A DNA stretch of 64,000 nt from Rhizobacter sp. OV335 (GTDB lineage Bacteria; Pseudomonadota; Gammaproteobacteria; Burkholderiales; Burkholderiaceae_C), in the NCBI RefSeq assembly GCF_900142965.1, contig NZ_FRCQ01000029.1, positions 1 through 64,000 of the forward strand, written 5' to 3'. Below are positions 29,011 to 55,216 of the stretch, piece after piece; positions within the stretch are counted from its first letter, which is position 1; every line of letters starts with the position of its first letter. A model generated the notes under the pieces. The model saw only the letters and a program-made list of their open reading frames with translations, did not search any database and was not told the origin of the DNA. Position numbers and translations under genes: made by a program.

Positions 29011-29050
29011 GCGGAGATCAGGCCTTCGATTCCCCGCATTGGCAAGAGGG

Positions 29051-29143
29051 CGGAGGGGCATGGGAGTCGAACCCACCCGGCGGCGCATGGCACCACCCAC
29101 CGGGTTTGAAGCCCGGCCGTCCCACCAGGGACGTTCCCCCTCC
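29051..29143 (-). tRNA. selC: tRNA-Sec (UCA anticodon)
   Basis: 93-nt cloverleaf with the hallmarks of selenocysteine tRNA. The acceptor strands are GGAGGGGG (5') and GCCCCTCC (3') plus discriminator G; there are seven clean pairs and an eighth G-G position. The anticodon loop is CTTCAAA, giving anticodon UCA, closed by CCGGG/CCCGG pairs. The variable arm is very long, and the T arm is GTGGG-TTCGACT-CCCAT. CCA is not encoded. It reads UGA in fdhA at 41233-41235. It lies 9 bp downstream of selB on the same strand, consistent with co-transcription. Confidence 0.95.
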
Positions 29144-29152
29144 TCGGGTCGC

Positions 29153-44804: not shown

Positions 44805-44837
44805 TGGTCGAGCATACAAAGGATGACTGCTTCAGAC

Positions 44838-44854
44838 GGCGGATTCAACCGGTC
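44838..44854 (+). repeat. Solo copy of the IS30-type terminal repeat
   Basis: GGCGGATTCAACCGGTC occurs here exactly as at the left end of the IS30 element (49721-49737) and inverted at its right end (50933-50949). The match stops after 17 bp. It marks the far side of the 1539-residue nuclease-like gene. Confidence 0.8.
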
Positions 44855-44982
44855 CCGTGACAACTTTCCGGCAAAGCTGTCGCTCGATGCGCCTAGCGAC
44901 AAGGAACCGCAGTTGTCCTACCCGGTTGGAGGACCGTCTTGACCAGCGGAGTCATGTGCACTATTCCACGGATTGATCGGGA

Positions 44983-47900
44983 TCAGCCTTTCGTTGGCGT
45001 GAAAGGCGGTGCAGCTGGGAAGGGCGCGGGTGGCTGCGTTTCCGCATTTATAGCGGGCTCCTCATCGGGGACGCTCGCCATGAGCAGCACGGGCTTCTCG
45101 TCTGAGTGCGGGTTTTCCGGAGTCTTTTCAACTGTCTCAACGAGCGGGGTCGTCCGGCTTGTCTCTGCGGCGTCCTCAGCCGTTTTCATCAGCCAAGGGG
45201 TACGGCCAACCATCAATACCTTGACGTTGACCGGTCGGAGTCGCGGGGGAGCTTCCTTTGCCCGATGCAGACCTTCCTGAATGAAGGGTGCCAGATACTC
45301 GAGCGTTCTTCTTACTGCCCGAGTACGCTCCATGTCTGCCGGCTTGTAGAGGTACACCGCATCCGTTGGCGTGAGCAGGTTCATGAGGAACTGCACTAGC
45401 TTTTCCGGCAGGTCAGCCGGGCAGTTTTTGTTCCTTGCCAGACCCTCGGTGACGTGACACAACAGCTCACCGAAGGCGCCCATGGTCGTGGATGACTGTG
45501 ATAGCACCTGGAGACATTCGAGAGTCGCGGTCAGCACTGAGTCGAACAGAATGGTGTCGCTGTTCAAGTACTGCTTGAACCGTGCGACACCTCCCTTGAG
45601 CCAATTGGTGCCCTGTTGGCAGAGCAATGCAAGGTCGAAACCCCCGAGCATCACGAAAGAGCGGTTTGAAAGAAACATCCTTGCGGCAGCTAGCGAATAC
45701 GCCGACTGCATAAGCGCCAGCAGCTGCAACGCGTGCATCAGGACAACCTGAGGCCAGACTCCCTGAATCTGCAAGTGTCCGGCCCACGAACGAAGACGCC
45801 CGTCGACGGTAAAGATGTGCGCACCCGTCTCAGCAGCAACAAGCAAGACCGAATAGTCCTCTTCGCCGATGACCTTGCGCAGACTCTGCAGAAGTGGCTG
45901 CTGCTCTTCCGGGCCGTAGGCAGCCACGACCGTCGTAAACCCGTCGATTGCGTCAGCGATTGATTGCAGGAACTGAATGTTGCGCGCATGGTCGGCCGGC
46001 GTAATCTCAACGAAGCCCAACTTCCCATTCGCCTCGAAAGCTTGACCCCAGGACCGGGCCAATTTCGCCTCTTCCAGCGCCCCGACGACCCTGTCACGTG
46101 TACGAGAGCAAACGAGAATCTTAGGTAGGATAGACAGCACGTCAAGCTGGTCCAGAGCCGCGAGTTCACACAGTGTGGCTGCGTCGATGACGTAGGCGGC
46201 CGAGGCCTCTTTCAGCACCGACAGTGCGGACTGAATCTCTGGTTCGGTCCCTTCGCACACAAAAAGCGAAGGCCCGTCCGACGGCCACCCACGCACCAAC
46301 TCCAAAGTGCTGCGCCCCACAAGGCGAGCAAGGCCGCCCAGGGTAATCGGAATCTTCGAGTAGTTCTCGAACGCGTTTCTTGAGTGCTCACCATTTCGCT
46401 TTAACTGCTCGAGGACACCCGAGAAGTCCATGCCATCCGCGGTCTTTCGGATGGGCACTGACATTGCATTGGGAACTGGCGTCAGCGAGGCGTCGATGGC
46501 TTGTTTCGCCAAGCCGAGCAACCGGCGGTGCGAAGACTCGATGGCGACAACCGTGAACCTTCGTACTGAACCAAAGGCCCCCTCAACGGCAACCTCTTCG
46601 TCGACCGCACGACCGATGAAGGGCTGAACGTGTTGAGACGCTGAACTCTTGAACTCAACCGTCTCTGGCAAGTCAGTCAACGGCTCCGGGTCCAAGGTAA
46701 TCCATACCCGCATTCCATCGGCATCGCGGACCGTGACCGCGCAACCCGGGCCAACCAAGGGGAGCTTCTCCTCCATGTTCGGAAGCTCGTCCGTAATGGC
46801 GCAGCACGTGAGAAGGAAGGCCGACGCGGCCTCGACGTTCTCCATGTTCTCGCGCCGAAGCCGATACATCCGGCGCATTCCGTTCTCTGCGAGCCCATGC
46901 CGAAGCTCCAACGCAGCGACCTGGCTGACTTGCTGAATGCTGCCTTCGAGCCGCTCCGGGAAAGTCTTGAGCAACTCGATGAGTGCGGAAGTCGGTTCGC
47001 CGCGAACGGCCACCATGAACTTGAACAACCAACTCGACGCGTGGTTTGGCGCAGCCCGATGCTGCGCAGTGGCGAGGGTCTTGAGCAATGCCCAGTCCCC
47101 AGCGCTCTGCCCCAGCTCCATGGCGAGTGAGCGCGCGTTGTCGTCCTCAGCCCATCCAGTAGGAAACGACTCAATCAGCTTCTTGGCACCCCGGAGGCCG
47201 CCGGAACGGACCGGGGCGTGCAACCAGCGCGTGTGCAATTCGCAGTGGTGGCCAAGTGGAAGCACCTTTGCATAGGCCGCAGACGCTTCCTCGTAGCGCT
47301 TCGCCTCAAACAGGAGTTCTGCAAGGAGCAGGGTTGTCTCAGGCCCATCCTCTCGGCTCGCAGCAACCGTAGCCAACTCAATTGCGTGCTCGGCTGCGCC
47401 CGAGTCCTTCGATAGCAGCAGAATGCGGGCCGCACCAAGCAGAGTCGTGAAGGTCGTCTTCTCGTCCAGGGGCTGTGCCTTGACTTCTTCGACCGCTTTG
47501 TCACGCAGCGGCGAGAAGTACATCCCCATCCAACGGATAGACCGCATCGCGTCCAGCGTGTCAGGACGAGAGCGCTCGACTTTTTCTGCGGCGGCAATTG
47601 CCAGGTCGACCAAGCCGATGTCGGCCGCGTGCGCTGCCGCCTGCGCCAAGCTGACCAAGCCTCCTTCATCAAGCTGGCCGACAACCTCGCGCCCACGCGT
47701 CTTCAGTTTGTCGACTAAGCCAGCTTGGTTCAATGCATCCAGCTCCATGCGAAGCAGGCCTGATGAGGCAATACCATGTGCCGCGGCCTCCTGCGCCACT
47801 GTGATTGCATCCATTGGCCGCTTGAGCATGAGATAGGCGAATCCGAGGTGTGAGGCCGCGTCAGCGACCGTCCGCTTCGACTGAACGGACCAAAGCCGGT

Positions 47901-49602
47901 CCAGGCGCGGCTCGAACGCAGCGACGGCGGTGTTCAGCGCATCAGCAATAGAGGCGTCGACAAGTCGATAGGTTGAGCGAACTCCGTTGGTAGTCGCCGC
48001 CTCCAGCGCAATCGTCAGGGCCGCATGGCGCGTGTAGAAGCCCGCGTCCGACGCCTTCAGGGACCGAATGCTGAAGTCAATGGCTGCTGGAAACTCGTTG
48101 GCTGACCGCCGCCCCCAGGCCAGCATCTGCAGAACGTCTGCGCTGTCCCGATCGGCCAGTGGCGCGTCCGTCTGTTGAATGGAGTCGCCATGCACGATTC
48201 GGGCGCTGGCCAGCGCAATCCAGACGTAGACCGAGTTGGGGAAGCGCTCTTTCGCGGTCAAACCAGCGGCAATTGCTCCGTCGACATCCTTCTTCAGCAA
48301 GAGACCTCGGATGCGCGCAGCAACCACCTTATCGTCATCACTCGACAGGTCAGCAGCCTTCAAGAAATCGTCAGCTGCTTGTTCGATGTTGCCGAGGTGC
48401 CAATGGCAGGCGCCTCGCTGCAGATACCAGTGAGCGCGTTGATGCGCGTCGAATGGACCGAGGTCCTTGCCCAGCGTCGTGATGTCTGCCAGGGCGTCCT
48501 CGTATCGAAACTGCTTCAACTTCTCATTGATGCCGTCGAGTTGGCCGCCGATAACCTTGTTGACGGCATCGGGGCGTCCGCTGGGCAACGCAATTTCAGA
48601 CGCGCGTGCTTCGACTGCTCGCGGTGTCGCACCGACGCCAATCCCAAGCGTGGCGGCACCGGTGCCTTCCAGAACACGTTCGTAGACGGATTCCGCAGCA
48701 CCACCCAGCGCGGCAAGAGTCGGTTGAGGAAGCCTCGACGCACCACTGCTGCGATGCCTTGCAAATGCCGCTGAGAGCGTGCTGCTGATCTGGCCGTCCA
48801 GATTCGCGGCGGTGACGTGCGCCGCAAGGGGGTTCAGGCGCTGACAGGCGCCAACCAACTCTGCCCAAATCGAGGTAGGTGCGACGGGGTGAGCCAAGCC
48901 GAACACCCGCTGAATGCGCGAGAGAATGTCGGCAAACTCCGGGGTGGTTTGCGTCGACAGTCGATGGGATACAAACCACAGGTGCGAGCAGAAGCTGCGC
49001 AGCTCGTCGGGATGCATAGGTCCTTCGACAATGTCTCGCACAATCCCTTCGATGGTGGCGAGCGCACCCCGGATAGGTTCGGAACTGAAGCGCGGCGCTG
49101 TCACTTTCAAGACGAAGTCTGCGCCGTTGGTTGAGGTCCGAGCGAACTCCGATACTCGCTCGGCGCCGCGGACGTTGGAGTCCCCGTCGCCGTCGTACAC
49201 CACCGCGATGCGGTCTACCCAAGGCGTAAAGAGGGCCACATTCTTGAAGTCAAACCAAGCGCCTGTTAGCGCCTCCCGGAAGGGGCCATTGGACGCTGTC
49301 GACTTCAGAGTCTGCTTGACCTGCAGCAGTACCTTGTGGACAGTCCCCGCACGGTCTTCAACGAGGCAGACCAAGTCGTCGGTGTTGTAGGTCAGGACCC
49401 TGACCTGAAACTGCAGGCCAACGACGGTTCCTTCCGGAAGCAGGGCGGTGGGCTCCCCGGTGAACTGGGCAAGCAGATAGACCGCCTGCACCCGGGACTC
49501 GTACGAGCCACCCTCGTTGCTCGTTGAACGCGGGTTGGACACCTGCTTAGGCTTGACCTTGGTAGGCGCTTTCGCTGGGGGCTTAGTCTTTGGCTTGGCC
49601 AT
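44983..49602 (-). CDS. Giant putative defence protein: REase-like, TPR, GreAB-C-like and PIN-like domains
   Basis: 1539 residues from MAKPKTK (ATG 49602); an in-frame extension reaches into the IS30 end and is not used. After a Lys/Pro-rich start, residues 33-200 resemble a PD-(D/E)xK nuclease of the DUF4297/Cap4 kind: SYESRVQAVYLLAQF, TDDLVCLVEDRAG and LLQVKQT, giving acidic residues followed by Q94-x-K96. About 390-900 is helical with TPR-like pairs (HWYLQRGACHWHLGNIEQAADDFLKAADL). Residues 945-1035 (GPGCAVTVRDADG ... QPFIGRAVDEEVAVEGAFG) resemble the GreA/GreB C-terminal domain. Residues 1135-1275 look like a PIN nuclease (YVIDAATLCELAALDQLDVL ... IFTVDGRLRSWAG). No NTPase motif. GC is lower than the flanks. 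IS30 lies 119 bp upstream; FRG and Abi_C genes follow beyond it. Function inferred. Confidence 0.8.
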   Translation of the reverse strand: MAKPKTKPPAKAPTKVKPKQVSNPRSTSNEGGSYESRVQAVYLLAQFTGEPTALLPEGTVVGLQFQVRVLTYNTDDLVCLVEDRAGTVHKVLLQVKQTLKSTASNGPFREALTGAWFDFKNVALFTPWVDRIAVVYDGDGDSNVRGAERVSEFARTSTNGADFVLKVTAPRFSSEPIRGALATIEGIVRDIVEGPMHPDELRSFCSHLWFVSHRLSTQTTPEFADILSRIQRVFGLAHPVAPTSIWAELVGACQRLNPLAAHVTAANLDGQISSTLSAAFARHRSSGASRLPQPTLAALGGAAESVYERVLEGTGAATLGIGVGATPRAVEARASEIALPSGRPDAVNKVIGGQLDGINEKLKQFRYEDALADITTLGKDLGPFDAHQRAHWYLQRGACHWHLGNIEQAADDFLKAADLSSDDDKVVAARIRGLLLKKDVDGAIAAGLTAKERFPNSVYVWIALASARIVHGDSIQQTDAPLADRDSADVLQMLAWGRRSANEFPAAIDFSIRSLKASDAGFYTRHAALTIALEAATTNGVRSTYRLVDASIADALNTAVAAFEPRLDRLWSVQSKRTVADAASHLGFAYLMLKRPMDAITVAQEAAAHGIASSGLLRMELDALNQAGLVDKLKTRGREVVGQLDEGGLVSLAQAAAHAADIGLVDLAIAAAEKVERSRPDTLDAMRSIRWMGMYFSPLRDKAVEEVKAQPLDEKTTFTTLLGAARILLLSKDSGAAEHAIELATVAASREDGPETTLLLAELLFEAKRYEEASAAYAKVLPLGHHCELHTRWLHAPVRSGGLRGAKKLIESFPTGWAEDDNARSLAMELGQSAGDWALLKTLATAQHRAAPNHASSWLFKFMVAVRGEPTSALIELLKTFPERLEGSIQQVSQVAALELRHGLAENGMRRMYRLRRENMENVEAASAFLLTCCAITDELPNMEEKLPLVGPGCAVTVRDADGMRVWITLDPEPLTDLPETVEFKSSASQHVQPFIGRAVDEEVAVEGAFGSVRRFTVVAIESSHRRLLGLAKQAIDASLTPVPNAMSVPIRKTADGMDFSGVLEQLKRNGEHSRNAFENYSKIPITLGGLARLVGRSTLELVRGWPSDGPSLFVCEGTEPEIQSALSVLKEASAAYVIDAATLCELAALDQLDVLSILPKILVCSRTRDRVVGALEEAKLARSWGQAFEANGKLGFVEITPADHARNIQFLQSIADAIDGFTTVVAAYGPEEQQPLLQSLRKVIGEEDYSVLLVAAETGAHIFTVDGRLRSWAGHLQIQGVWPQVVLMHALQLLALMQSAYSLAAARMFLSNRSFVMLGGFDLALLCQQGTNWLKGGVARFKQYLNSDTILFDSVLTATLECLQVLSQSSTTMGAFGELLCHVTEGLARNKNCPADLPEKLVQFLMNLLTPTDAVYLYKPADMERTRAVRRTLEYLAPFIQEGLHRAKEAPPRLRPVNVKVLMVGRTPWLMKTAEDAAETSRTTPLVETVEKTPENPHSDEKPVLLMASVPDEEPAINAETQPPAPFPAAPPFTPTKG

Positions 49603-49720
49603 GAGGTCAATGCTGGCGCTTGTTGCGTCGGTGGCTTCCCTCAGCGAGGTCTGGGACCCGCGGAGGGGAGACATTGAATGGGTAGGACGTATGTTTATAC
49701 GGCTAAAGACAGCAACCGCT

Positions 49721-50949
49721 GGCGGATTCAACCGGTCATCGCAACACATTCGCTGAATCTCTCAGCGGGCGTTTGGAAGCCGAGCGTCTTGCGCGGCCTC
49801 TCGTTCAATTGTCTGGCGATCGAGTTGAGCTGAAGCTGTGAGTAGCCCGAGATGTCGATGCCCTTTGGCAGGTACTGCCTGAGCAGCCCGTTGGTATTCT
49901 CGTTGCTACCCCGTTGCCAAGGACTTCGAGGGTCACAGAAGTAGACCTGGATGTCGGTGGCCATGGTGAATCGCTTGTGCCCATGCATCTCCGTGCCTCG
50001 ATCCCAGGTGAGCGATTTGTAGAGCTCCTGCGGCAGCTTGCGGGCGTTCCTGATGAGTGCGTTGACGACCGTCTGCGAGTCCTTGCCGTCCAGCTTCACC
50101 AGCATCACGTATCGCGTCTGGCGCTCCACCAAGGTCGCGATCTGGCTGTTGCCGCTGCCAAAGACCAAGTCGCCTTCCCAATGACCAGGCACTGCCCGGT
50201 CCTCGATTGATGCGGGCCGCTCGCTGATCGACACCGCGTCGGCGATCTGACCGTGGATCGCGGTCTTCTGCGTGTAGGAACGAGCGCGACGCATCCCGCG
50301 CGTGCGCCGCAGATGCTCCAGCAGTTCCTTCTTCAAGGCACCGCGCGCTTGAATGAACAGACTGCGGTAGATCGTCTCGTGTGACACGTGAAGGCTCGGG
50401 GCGCTCGGATAAGTATGCTTGAGCCAACCAGCGATTTGCTCCGGTGACCACAGCATCCGAAGCATGTCCGCCACGATGCCAGCCAGAGCGTGGTTCTTGG
50501 CCAATTTGCAGAGCTTCGGTCGAAGAGCGCGCTCCCAGGCAGCTTGGTCTGCCAGGGTCGCCCGATAGCCATCCAGGCCGCCGTTGCGTCCGATCTCCCG
50601 GCTGATGGTCGACGGCGCTCTTCCAAGGCGGGCGGCGATTGAACGCATCGAATGACCGACTGTCAGCGCACGTGAGATCTCTTCTCGTTCTTCCAGCGAC
50701 AGCGCGGTTGCGCAGCGCCGACGCTCGAGCGGTCGAATGCCACCCGTCTTCGACAGGATGTTGTGGATCGACGTGTGCGGCCGGTCAAACAGCTTGCCGA
50801 TCTCATGAAGCGTCCAGCCTTCCTTCCAACGCGCCCACATCAACGCCTTCTGCGTGGCGGTGTAGTACGTTCGCGTGCGGTACTTCATTTGCAACACTCC
50901 TTCTGCCTGAGCAGTGGTTAGTGTGTTGCGTCGACCGGTTGAATCCGCC
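49721..50949 (-). mobile_element. IS30-family insertion sequence, apparently intact
   Basis: 1229 bp bounded by inverted repeats: left 49721-49748 and right 50922-50949, both GGCGGATTCAACCGGTC, two differing bases, then CGCAACACA when read inward. A 2-bp CT duplication flanks the element, within the 2-3 bp target duplications known for IS30. One transposase gene fills it, and its stop codon lies inside the left repeat. No disruption seen, so it may be active. Confidence 0.93.
49728..50888 (-). CDS. IS30-family transposase
   Basis: 386 residues from ATG 50888, which has GGAG eight bases upstream; a GTG at 50897 is an alternative. Two N-terminal helix-turn-helix parts (ALMWARWKEGWTLHEIGKLFDRPHTSIHNIL and SLEEREEISRALTVGHSMRSIAARLGRAPSTISREI) precede the DDE catalytic core: GHWEGDLVFG, LTWDRGTEM and SPWQRGSNENTNGLLRQYLPKG provide the acidic triad. 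Ends RPRKTLGFQTPAERF as usual for IS30. Full family length, no frameshift. Confidence 0.97.
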   Translation of the reverse strand: MKYRTRTYYTATQKALMWARWKEGWTLHEIGKLFDRPHTSIHNILSKTGGIRPLERRRCATALSLEEREEISRALTVGHSMRSIAARLGRAPSTISREIGRNGGLDGYRATLADQAAWERALRPKLCKLAKNHALAGIVADMLRMLWSPEQIAGWLKHTYPSAPSLHVSHETIYRSLFIQARGALKKELLEHLRRTRGMRRARSYTQKTAIHGQIADAVSISERPASIEDRAVPGHWEGDLVFGSGNSQIATLVERQTRYVMLVKLDGKDSQTVVNALIRNARKLPQELYKSLTWDRGTEMHGHKRFTMATDIQVYFCDPRSPWQRGSNENTNGLLRQYLPKGIDISGYSQLQLNSIARQLNERPRKTLGFQTPAERFSECVAMTG

Positions 50950-51231: not shown

Positions 51232-52587
51232 ATGTACAACTTTCTCGTTACGAGTCAAGACGGCGCATGGGAGGGGGACGACTACGAGTACGAGCGCAGC
51301 CGCTTTCTCGAATACACGAACAGTGACATCGCCTCGCGGTTCGAGGAGCTCAAGACGCCTCAGATAGAAACCCTGCTGAAGTTCCCTTGCCTGTTCGCCT
51401 ACGAGGGCTCCGTGAAGCCGATGCGCGTCGGCCGGCTGCTTGAGGTCAAGCGTCGCGACAACGGCCGCAAGCTGTACCTCCGGTTCAGCATCGATCTGAA
51501 CATACAACCGATTCCGCACGAGAGTATCGACCAGCTGAAGCGCGCGCTGGACATACGCAATTGGGAGCTCAACCGCACCCATTGGGCGATCAAGGAAGAG
51601 GATCTGCTTGCGATCCTGAATCGCGAGAACTTGGCCGACGCCTCCTCGGTGGCGGAGTCCCCCAAGATTCAGCAAGGAGATCTCCCCCCGGTACCAGCGC
51701 CCGACAATCTGGCGGCTTCAGTTGACGCGTTCATCAAGTTGGTAGTCGAAATGGCTGACGCATCGAGAGAGGTGTTCTATCGCGGACACTCGAACCGAAC
51801 GAAGTACAAACTGCTGCCATCACTCTTTCGGACCAACGAGGGAGGCGAGCCCATATACCGGGACGCAGAGGACACGATGTGTCGCGAACTCTTGGTTTCC
51901 AACTCCGCGGACTTTCAAGGCGACGTCTACACACTGGATCGACTAGTGCGAATGCAGCATTACGCTCTCCCGACGCGTCTTTTGGACATTACGTCCAACC
52001 CTCTGATCGCCTTGTACTTCGCGTGCATGAGCAACCCTGACGATCAAGGCGAAGTGATTAGCTTCTCGATGGAACGCGCAACGGTGAAATACTTCGACTC
52101 CGACACGGCCAGTTGCATCGCCAATCTCTCGCGCCTCTCCAAAGCATCGAAGGACTCGTTGGACCTGCTCAACGATGCCAACATTGCCGATTTCAATCAG
52201 CGTCAATCGGTGAAACAGCTGCTGCACTTCATCAAGGAGGAGAAGCCTTACTTCGATGATCGAATCGACCCTGAGCACCTGCGCTCGGTGATCTGCGTCA
52301 AAGGAAAGCGCACCAACAGCCGCATCTCGTTCCAGTCGGGTGCATTTCTCTTGTTCGGTGAAGAAGCAACTCTCAAGGAGGAGGGCTCATCCACGATCTC
52401 AGTCGCGCGTATTGCCATTGAAAATAAGGCCGGGCTGCTGCGGCAACTCGATACGCTCAATATCAACCAGAGCACCGTGTTCCCATACATCGAGAATTCA
52501 GCTAAGTACATCGCGCATCGATACCGACTCCAGTCTCTCAATGAGGTCGTCACTGGCGAGGCGAAAGGCTCGGCCGACGGCTCCTGA
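51232..52587 (+). CDS. FRG-domain protein (defence-associated)
   Basis: 451 residues. The N-terminal 150 residues (YNFLVTSQDGAWEGDDYEYERSRFLEYTN) are of unknown type. From about 165 comes the FRG domain named for its Phe/Arg-Gly motif: EVFYRGHSNRTKYKLLPSLFR, then RMQHYALPTRLLDITSNPLIALYFACM and, later, RISFQSGAFLLFGE. FRG proteins are frequent in phage-defence and toxin neighbourhoods; an ADP-ribosyl-transferase-like activity has been proposed but is not generally proven. The ATG at 51232 starts a soluble protein. It is 151 bp ahead of the Abi_C gene on the same strand and both are of lower GC than the flanks. Confidence 0.9.
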   Translation: MYNFLVTSQDGAWEGDDYEYERSRFLEYTNSDIASRFEELKTPQIETLLKFPCLFAYEGSVKPMRVGRLLEVKRRDNGRKLYLRFSIDLNIQPIPHESIDQLKRALDIRNWELNRTHWAIKEEDLLAILNRENLADASSVAESPKIQQGDLPPVPAPDNLAASVDAFIKLVVEMADASREVFYRGHSNRTKYKLLPSLFRTNEGGEPIYRDAEDTMCRELLVSNSADFQGDVYTLDRLVRMQHYALPTRLLDITSNPLIALYFACMSNPDDQGEVISFSMERATVKYFDSDTASCIANLSRLSKASKDSLDLLNDANIADFNQRQSVKQLLHFIKEEKPYFDDRIDPEHLRSVICVKGKRTNSRISFQSGAFLLFGEEATLKEEGSSTISVARIAIENKAGLLRQLDTLNINQSTVFPYIENSAKYIAHRYRLQSLNEVVTGEAKGSADGS

Positions 52588-52738: not shown

Positions 52739-53563
52739 ATGGCAGCTTCGCAAACCGCACCGCTCAACGACGAGATCATTGTTGCACTCGGGCAGCTTGT
52801 CGACGACGCTCAGACGGGCCGGCGCGATCCGAGCCATTCGGATATCGAGCACTTGATCCTGCGGCACTCGCTGCGGGCGGGGGATCCCAACAGCAACGGG
52901 CAGACCGTCGGCAAGATGAAGCGGATTCGAGCCGTCCTGAGCTGGGCCTTGGAAGGTGCGCCCGATGCTGGCGGTTCGTTCGCGATCTCGTTTGTCTCAC
53001 TGGTACGCGGGCACGGAGGTTTCAGAGTTGGATCACCCAACTACGTCGGTGCGGATGCTCTCGGCAACTGCATAGCGGCGTTTGCGTCGGAGGGATTCGT
53101 CCTGGGAGTTGACGGAGACCTTCGGGCCAAGGTGCTCGACGCACTGACAGGCATGGCGCTGACCGATGCACTAATGACGTACGTGCGTCGCGCCAAAAAA
53201 GGCGCGGAAGACGCCGCGCTGGAGGTGGGGACCGGAAAGGATTTGGTCGAAGCGGTGGCGGCACATGTCCTTCAGCAGAAGTTCGGTGCGTACTCGCCTC
53301 AGGCCAACTTTCCGACGCTGCTCGGTCAGGCCTTTGTAGCGCTGAACTTGTCCACGCCGCAGAGCCCTGTCCTGGCAGGAGAACCGGCGCAACGGCGTGT
53401 GGAGCGTGCCATGTATGAACTCGCCTGCGCTGTCAATCAGCTTCGCAACAAGCAAGGCACGGGACACGGTCGCCCATGGCTGCCTACTTTGACCGATGCC
53501 GAGGCACGCTCTGCGATTGAATCTATGGGGCTTGTTGCCGAGTTTCTGCTGCTTCGTATGTGA
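52739..53563 (+). CDS. Abortive infection protein with Abi_C domain
   Basis: 274 residues. The C-terminal 90 residues carry the Abi_C signature: RRVERAMYELACAVNQLRNKQGTGHGRPWLPTLTDAEARSAIESMGLVAEFLL, with the RNKxGTGHGR core. The N-terminal part includes SDIEHLILRHSLRAGDPN and MKRIRAVLSWALEG, also seen in members. Abi proteins kill or arrest infected cells; the mechanism of this family is unsettled. The ATG at 52739 begins MAASQTAPL. Probably transcribed with the FRG gene. Confidence 0.88.
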   Translation: MAASQTAPLNDEIIVALGQLVDDAQTGRRDPSHSDIEHLILRHSLRAGDPNSNGQTVGKMKRIRAVLSWALEGAPDAGGSFAISFVSLVRGHGGFRVGSPNYVGADALGNCIAAFASEGFVLGVDGDLRAKVLDALTGMALTDALMTYVRRAKKGAEDAALEVGTGKDLVEAVAAHVLQQKFGAYSPQANFPTLLGQAFVALNLSTPQSPVLAGEPAQRRVERAMYELACAVNQLRNKQGTGHGRPWLPTLTDAEARSAIESMGLVAEFLLLRM

Positions 53564-54434: not shown

Positions 54435-54553
54435 TGGGGTGTCCTTCCATGTTTGGCCAGCGGTCAGTTTGCCAGCTGGGCTGGTAGCCGAAACGACCAG
54501 TGTCTGATTGGAGAGCTGGGCGCTGCAGTCGCACCAGCACGCAGAATCCCCGA

Positions 54554-55216
54554 ATGACTGAAGCGATCATCAGCGAGTTGCAAAACATCGTGCGGCGACA
54601 CGCCCAGCTGGATACCGACGCGCACGGACCGGAACTTCGGCCGGTGCTCCCCCGCGGGCCGCGAGACGCCGCCATCTGTTTCGTGGGCAGGGATCCCGGC
54701 GAAAAGGAAGCGAAGTGCGGCCTCCCCTTCATCGGCGAATCCGGGCAGCGCCTGCGCAATGGCTTGCTGGAGTTCTACACGCCGTCCGTCCTGCCCAGCG
54801 AGCAAAGCAGGCTCGAAGTCGGCGAGCGCTTCTTCTGGATGAGCACGGTGCCGTTCAAGCCCAGGGGCAACAAGTCCTGGAGCCAGCAGGTTCGGGTCGC
54901 GTGCCAGCCGATGCTCCTGCAGCTGATGCAAGACCAGTGGGGCGGTCGCGATGTCGTGACGTTCGGGACCGAGGCGTTCTTCTGGTTCGGCATCGGTCAG
55001 CCGGACGAGACCCGGCAGAAGCTCCGCGCCTTCTGGGACCAGGGCGACATCAAGTACGAGCGGAGCATCGAAGTGCCGTTGCCCGGCCTGGCGCGCACTG
55101 TCTGCCTCCACCCGATGCCGCATCCATCGCCCGCCAACGCCCGATGGCGCGCGCGGTTCCCAGAGCTGTTCAAGCAGCGGCTGTCGTCGTTGTCATCGCC
55201 GTCGCGGCCTGCTTGA
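54554..55216 (+). CDS. Uracil-DNA glycosylase superfamily protein
   Basis: 220 residues from ATG 54554, which starts MTEAIISELQ; an upstream ATG at 54500 is less likely. Superfamily features: motif 1 VGRDPGEKEAKCGLPFIGESG (44-64), like the GEAPGxxE of family 4/5 enzymes, and motif 2 LHPMPHPSPANARW near the end. The cysteine pattern of an iron-sulfur family 4 enzyme is not complete, so it belongs to a divergent branch. Expected to excise uracil or a related base; specificity unknown. Confidence 0.8.
   Translation: MTEAIISELQNIVRRHAQLDTDAHGPELRPVLPRGPRDAAICFVGRDPGEKEAKCGLPFIGESGQRLRNGLLEFYTPSVLPSEQSRLEVGERFFWMSTVPFKPRGNKSWSQQVRVACQPMLLQLMQDQWGGRDVVTFGTEAFFWFGIGQPDETRQKLRAFWDQGDIKYERSIEVPLPGLARTVCLHPMPHPSPANARWRARFPELFKQRLSSLSSPSRPA

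What the first reader, a model, noticed from the sequence alone, without database searches (positions are those of the whole stretch)
44983..49602. Candidate new defence protein combining REase-like, TPR, GreAB-C-like and PIN-like domains
One 1539-residue protein appears to join an N-terminal PD-(D/E)xK-like nuclease (acidic residues then QVK), a long helical TPR-like middle, a domain resembling the C-terminal part of transcript-cleavage factors GreA/GreB, and a PIN-like RNase domain. There is no P-loop, so it is not a standard STAND/Avs protein. The pairing of a DNA-nuclease-like and an RNA-nuclease-like end with a domain that docks near RNA polymerase suggests sensing of phage transcription, which is speculation. 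It sits beside IS30, FRG and Abi_C genes in lower-GC DNA.
Basis: partly seen in the sequence, partly recalled or inferred. Interest (0 to 1): 0.82.

Follow-up and report, generated by a model that had tools for sequence, protein, structure and literature searches.

The report
Two-nuclease TPR–GreA/B-C–PIN defence protein
This is a large bacterial protein with a DNA-nuclease-like end, a part resembling proteins that dock on RNA polymerase, and an RNA-nuclease-like part; it belongs to an anti-invader family predicted in print in 2021, for which I found no experimental test.

Summary
Window 44983-49602 (-) is one open 1539-residue gene without a P-loop. Fold prediction supports all three domains: an N-terminal nuclease fold like Avs3, Cap4, Lamassu LmuA and Hachiman HamA, a GreA/Gfh1 C-terminal domain at residues 941-1022, and a PIN RNase at about 1128-1299.

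It is not a new kind. Pfam PF20698 is named for the "TPR-GreAB-C-PIN system". Kaur et al. 2021 (PMC8195603, passages read) describe this core with interchangeable N-terminal effectors, REases among them, and propose action at RNA polymerase. I found no experimental test (searches).

Added here: models of both ends; a same-genus relative with the same core but a different N-terminus; the same N-terminal domain on an Avs4-like STAND protein; PADLOC hits in genes flanking 6 of 10 relatives; an IS30 end at the left edge of the foreign segment. Best explanation: a horizontally acquired single-gene defence protein with two nucleases. Docking on polymerase is untested.

The parts
44983..49602 (-). 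the gene: 1539-residue TPR-GreA/B-C-PIN protein with a Cap4-like N-terminus
   Evidence: open frame; PF20698; models
48736..49509 (-). N-terminal PD-(D/E)xK-type nuclease domain, about residues 32-289; candidate active site D75/D76, Q94, K96
46798..48591 (-). TPR-like helical scaffold, about residues 338-935; start of the core shared with relatives that have another N-terminus
   Evidence: TPR hits; core alignment from residue 338. Most of this stretch was not modelled (the model starts at residue 860)
46537..46782 (-). GreA/Gfh1 C-terminal-like domain, residues 941-1022
45706..46221 (-). PIN domain, about residues 1128-1299; acidic residues D1140, E1146, E1248, D1267
45253..45705 (-). C-terminal helical region, about residues 1300-1450
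   Evidence: DSSP of the model
49721..50949 (.). IS30-family element with 28-nt inverted ends; transposase ORF 49728-50897 (-)
   Evidence: only full-length match in its own genome
44838..44854 (+). solitary 17-base IS30 end beside the gene's 3' side, at the left edge of the foreign segment
51232..52587 (+). neighbour: FRG-domain protein, PADLOC candidate family PDC-S15
52739..53563 (+). neighbour: Abi_C-domain protein

Best explanation
A stand-alone, horizontally acquired defence protein of the TPR-GreA/B-C-PIN family. Shown by sequence and models: a Cap4-like nuclease fold at the N-terminus, TPR-like repeats, a GreA/Gfh1 C-terminal-like domain and a PIN domain, with the residues expected of two active nucleases. 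Inferred: the GreA/B-C domain docks on RNA polymerase near the secondary channel (proposal of Kaur et al. 2021); the PIN domain cuts RNA there; the core acts as sensor and releases the N-terminal nuclease to cut DNA, of the invader or of the host (abortive infection). The order of events is inference.
For: Fold matches of the N-terminus are all defence nucleases at the top: Avs3, HerA-DUF, Cap4, LmuA, HamA. GreA/Gfh1 match by fold and profile. PIN fold and acidic residues: D1140 and D1267 in 34 of 34, E1146 and E1248 acidic in 33 of 34. Putative N-terminal active site invariant in 11 of 11. Different N-termini on one core; the same N-terminal domain on an Avs4-like protein. PADLOC hits in 8 of 20 flanking ORFs, 6 of 10 loci; FRG, SIR2 or abortive-infection genes beside Burkholderia plasmid relatives. 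Patchy: PF20698 in 14 of 398 genomes of the phylum, 10 of them over the cut-off; the core in 1 of the 10 other genomes of the genus. GC3 0.699 against 0.943 in a chromosomal gene nearby.
Against: No activity, phage or binding data. The window's own GreA/B-C stretch gives no Pfam hit. The Gre coiled coil is absent, and the proline of the Gfh1 'SP' motif is kept in 8 of 33 members, not in the window, so docking may be lost. PADLOC has no model of the protein. The neighbourhood control from the own genome was not empty, and type-B surroundings are not clearly enriched.
Confidence: 0.5

Rival explanations
1. The GreA/B-C-like domain no longer touches RNA polymerase. It and the TPRs recognise an invader protein directly, like the sensor half of Avs proteins; the Cap4-like nuclease is the main effector and PIN adds RNA decay.
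For: Same N-terminal domain on an Avs4-like STAND protein; 'SP' proline mostly missing; no coiled coil.
Against: The GreA/B-C fold and profile signal are kept across the family, which a free sensor would not require.
Confidence: 0.27
2. It acts mainly against plasmids or other mobile elements and serves competition between mobile elements rather than phage defence.
For: Relatives on plasmids (12 plasmid records, 6 with at least 80% of the query); IS30 beside the gene.
Against: Neighbours of relatives include phage-defence genes such as Thoeris and DRT parts, and phage-defence genes often ride on plasmids too (general knowledge).
Confidence: 0.12
3. A housekeeping transcription quality-control factor that clears stalled polymerase.
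For: GreA/Gfh1-like domain.
Against: Patchy distribution, foreign composition, defence neighbours, different N-termini.
Confidence: 0.03

Closest known systems
TPR-GreA/B-C-PIN conflict system (Kaur et al. 2021, PMC8195603; Pfam PF20698)
   Same: Order TPR, GreA/B-C, PIN, with a variable N-terminal effector; large stand-alone gene; REase is among the listed effectors (passages)
   Different: Whether their 'REase' includes this Cap4-like type could not be seen: figures and supplements are not held
Cap4 / HerA-DUF4297 / LmuA / HamA / Avs3 nuclease domains
   Different: No Pfam or PDB sequence match; attached to a TPR-GreA/B-C-PIN core instead of a SAVED, helicase, SMC-type or STAND partner (partners recalled)
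Avs4 (STAND) proteins with the same N-terminal domain
   Same: The window's N-terminal domain aligns with that of a Hymenobacter protein (26% over 231 residues) whose residues 299-1144 match PADLOC Avs4, E 1.2e-114
   Different: No P-loop and no NTPase here
GreA / GreB / Gfh1
   Same: C-terminal domain fold and profile
   Different: No N-terminal coiled coil; one domain inside a 1539-residue protein

Membership tests
TPR-GreA/B-C-PIN system (PF20698) | PIN domain of this family over the curated cut-off | tested here: met
   60.2 bits against 27.8
TPR-GreA/B-C-PIN system (PF20698) | GreA/B-C domain before the PIN domain | tested here: met
   fold and family profile; window sequence alone has no Pfam hit
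TPR-GreA/B-C-PIN system (PF20698) | TPR repeats before GreA/B-C | tested here: met
   one stretch over cut-off, others below
TPR-GreA/B-C-PIN system (PF20698) | variable N-terminal effector | tested here: met
TPR-GreA/B-C-PIN system (PF20698) | association with RNA polymerase | not testable with these tools
   needs binding data; a prediction in the source paper too
Cap4/DUF4297-type nuclease | shared nuclease fold | tested here: met
Cap4/DUF4297-type nuclease | match to a curated sequence model | tested here: not met
   no Pfam hit at E<=1 for the N-terminus; hence 'Cap4-like', not filed as a member
Cap4/DUF4297-type nuclease | metal-dependent DNA cutting | not testable with these tools
   residues present, no assay
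STAND / Avs | P-loop NTPase | tested here: not met
   no Walker A motif, no NTPase hit
Gre transcript-cleavage factor | N-terminal antiparallel coiled coil | tested here: not met
   helices before the domain are 13-14 residues long in the model

The most novel reading that the evidence does not exclude
One polypeptide parks on RNA polymerase through a Gre-type domain and, on invader transcription, uses PIN to cut the transcript and releases a Cap4-like nuclease against the template DNA: an Avs-like immune receptor in which the host polymerase, rather than a STAND NTPase, is the sensing platform.
Probability: 0.3. Interest if true: 0.8.

Novelty: new member of a known kind. Interest (0 to 1): 0.4.

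Why it matters
The family carries a published and striking prediction, immunity acting at RNA polymerase, for which I found no test (searches named in Tried and rejected). This member has usable models of both ends, two separately testable nuclease sites, and a same-genus relative with another N-terminus on the same core, so active-site and domain tests can be designed directly. The shared N-terminal domain links this core with Avs4-type sensors.

Tried and rejected
'Categorically new defence protein': rejected after PF20698 and the passages of Kaur et al. 2021.

'STAND/Avs protein': rejected, no P-loop and no NTPase hit.

Longer start at 49749: not favoured; it runs through the IS30 end, and several relatives start near the 49602 ATG.

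Composite IS30 transposon 44838-50949: the outer ends are inverted repeats, but the bases outside them, printed, do not make a matching target duplication, so it is not claimed. The IS30 copy itself (49721-50949) has CT on both outer sides, two bases only, weak. The left junction rests on a 9-base match read by eye from the flanks printed; the last BLAST match to the sister genome ends at 44815.

Repeated exchange of N-termini: not supported in this sample; the core tree needs one change between the two types (34 rows including the window and the viral-contig locus L082; left out: L065 partial, L068 and L070 near copies, L015 and L016; L049, L050 and L062 in the tree without a label).

Neighbourhood: PADLOC at 1e-10, ORFs called mechanically (longest first, 120 aa or more). 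Type A: 276 model families in 123 ORFs of 12 loci, within 6.5 kb (25 families shown). Control: 34 families in 75 ORFs from seven stretches of the window's own genome, not empty: HEC-01, AriA, mad3, Old and AbiLi models among them. Type B: 30 families in 115 ORFs of 20 loci, within 3.5 kb, a narrower span. Model families are redundant (one DRT protein gave 27), so these totals are only indicative. The flanking-gene count (8 of 20 ORFs, 6 of 10 loci) has no matched control; two of the eight hits (GajB-type helicase, E1-E2) cover only part of their models.

No relative in phage records or, with the single protein, in viral contigs; one in viral contigs with the alignment. PADLOC and NCBIfam name nothing for the protein over cut-off.

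Paper searches for an experimental test: (capped lists). Passages seen: PMC8195603, PMC7159879, PMC13092281, PMC10907252, PMC10270631; no full text read; other papers only as listings. PMC13092281 validates other PIN systems; the passages shown do not describe this family.

Full report
What was checked. The reported ORF is real: window 44983-49602 (-), 1539 residues, no internal stop, no P-loop. Pfam gives PF20698 'PIN-TPR-GreABC' at residues 1138-1274 (E 3.5e-16) and one TPR stretch over its cut-off. PADLOC and NCBIfam name nothing for it over cut-off.

Published precedent. Kaur et al. 2021 (PMC8195603; [quoted passage not shown] The N-terminal EAD10 domain is replaced in other examples by one of 13 effectors, such as REase, HNH, PNPase, TIR, SIR2 and peptidases. 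They suggest that GreA/B-C engages the beta' coiled coil of RNA polymerase, that PIN cuts the extruded transcript, and that the N-terminal effector acts if this fails. My searches found no experimental test.

Relatives. A scan of genome contigs with one conserved core motif gave 45 stretches, 35 of them relatives. Ten carry the window's N-terminal type (A), 22 another one that I read by eye as a different REase (B), and three could not be assigned (L049 is cut by its contig end but matches from query residue 105). On a tree of 34 cores the two types need one change, support 99. A Nostoc member has a phosphorylase domain in front. Two proteins with a phosphorylase or a Death-like domain (L044, L042) match PF20698 only below cut-off and belong nearer to a 'double PIN' relative. 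Near full-length relatives sit on Burkholderia plasmids, next to FRG and SIR2 genes or an abortive-infection gene and an integrase.

Context. Around type-A relatives PADLOC finds parts of Thoeris, DRT, Qat, Shedu, CBASS and Olokun (276 redundant model families in 123 ORFs). The control of 75 ORFs from the window's own genome gave 34, and type-B surroundings gave 30 in 115 ORFs over a narrower span, so enrichment is seen for type A and not clearly for type B. Of the two flanking ORFs of each of ten type-A loci, 8 of 20 have a hit, at 6 of 10 loci (no matched control). In the window the neighbours are an IS30 element, an FRG protein of PADLOC family PDC-S15 and an Abi_C protein.

Arrival. GC and GC3 are well below the chromosome to the left, though low GC continues to the right end of the window. 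PF20698 occurs in 14 of 398 genomes of the phylum, 10 over the cut-off; in the genus the core was found in 1 of 10 other genomes. An unnamed sister genome (G750) matches the window up to 44815 and shares nine bases just before 44838, then differs (by eye). At 44838 begins a 17-base sequence identical to both ends of the IS30 copy at 49721-50949; three matches in the window, 0.01 expected. The left edge of the foreign segment was therefore probably made by an IS30 end. The right edge is not resolved.

Verdict. An intact member of a described conflict family for which I found no test, with a Cap4-like nuclease fold as its N-terminal effector. The domain reading was right, the claim of newness was not. 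Docking to RNA polymerase, the order of events and phage specificity are inference.

Noticed in passing
window 44838-44854 and 49721-50949: A solitary 17-base IS30 end lies beside the gene's 3' side, identical to both ends of the IS30 copy upstream of the gene.
   Followed up: partly
window 51232-52587 (+): FRG-domain protein matching PADLOC candidate family PDC-S15 (E 3.4e-99) with an N-terminal extension of about 160 residues outside the match.
   Followed up: no
window 54500-55216 (+): Uracil-DNA-glycosylase superfamily gene; among the 10 other genomes of the genus one has a near full-length copy (78% identity, one stop inside, G750) and one a short piece.
   Followed up: no
L048:5816-7264 and L052:3715-5181: A bSEFIR gene lies near a type-A relative and near a type-B relative, with the same PADLOC score (312 bits).
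   Followed up: no
L020:7983-11546: Shewanella baltica plasmid protein with the type-A N-terminal domain; the rest has no Pfam or PADLOC match at E<=1.
   Followed up: no
   Followed up: no
L062: A Nitrosospira core gene whose ORF lacks the N-terminal part although upstream DNA is held; a split or broken gene is possible. Described only.
   Followed up: no
window 29049-29144 (-): tRNA-Sec gene, about 10 kb from a formate-dehydrogenase-like cluster.
   Followed up: no
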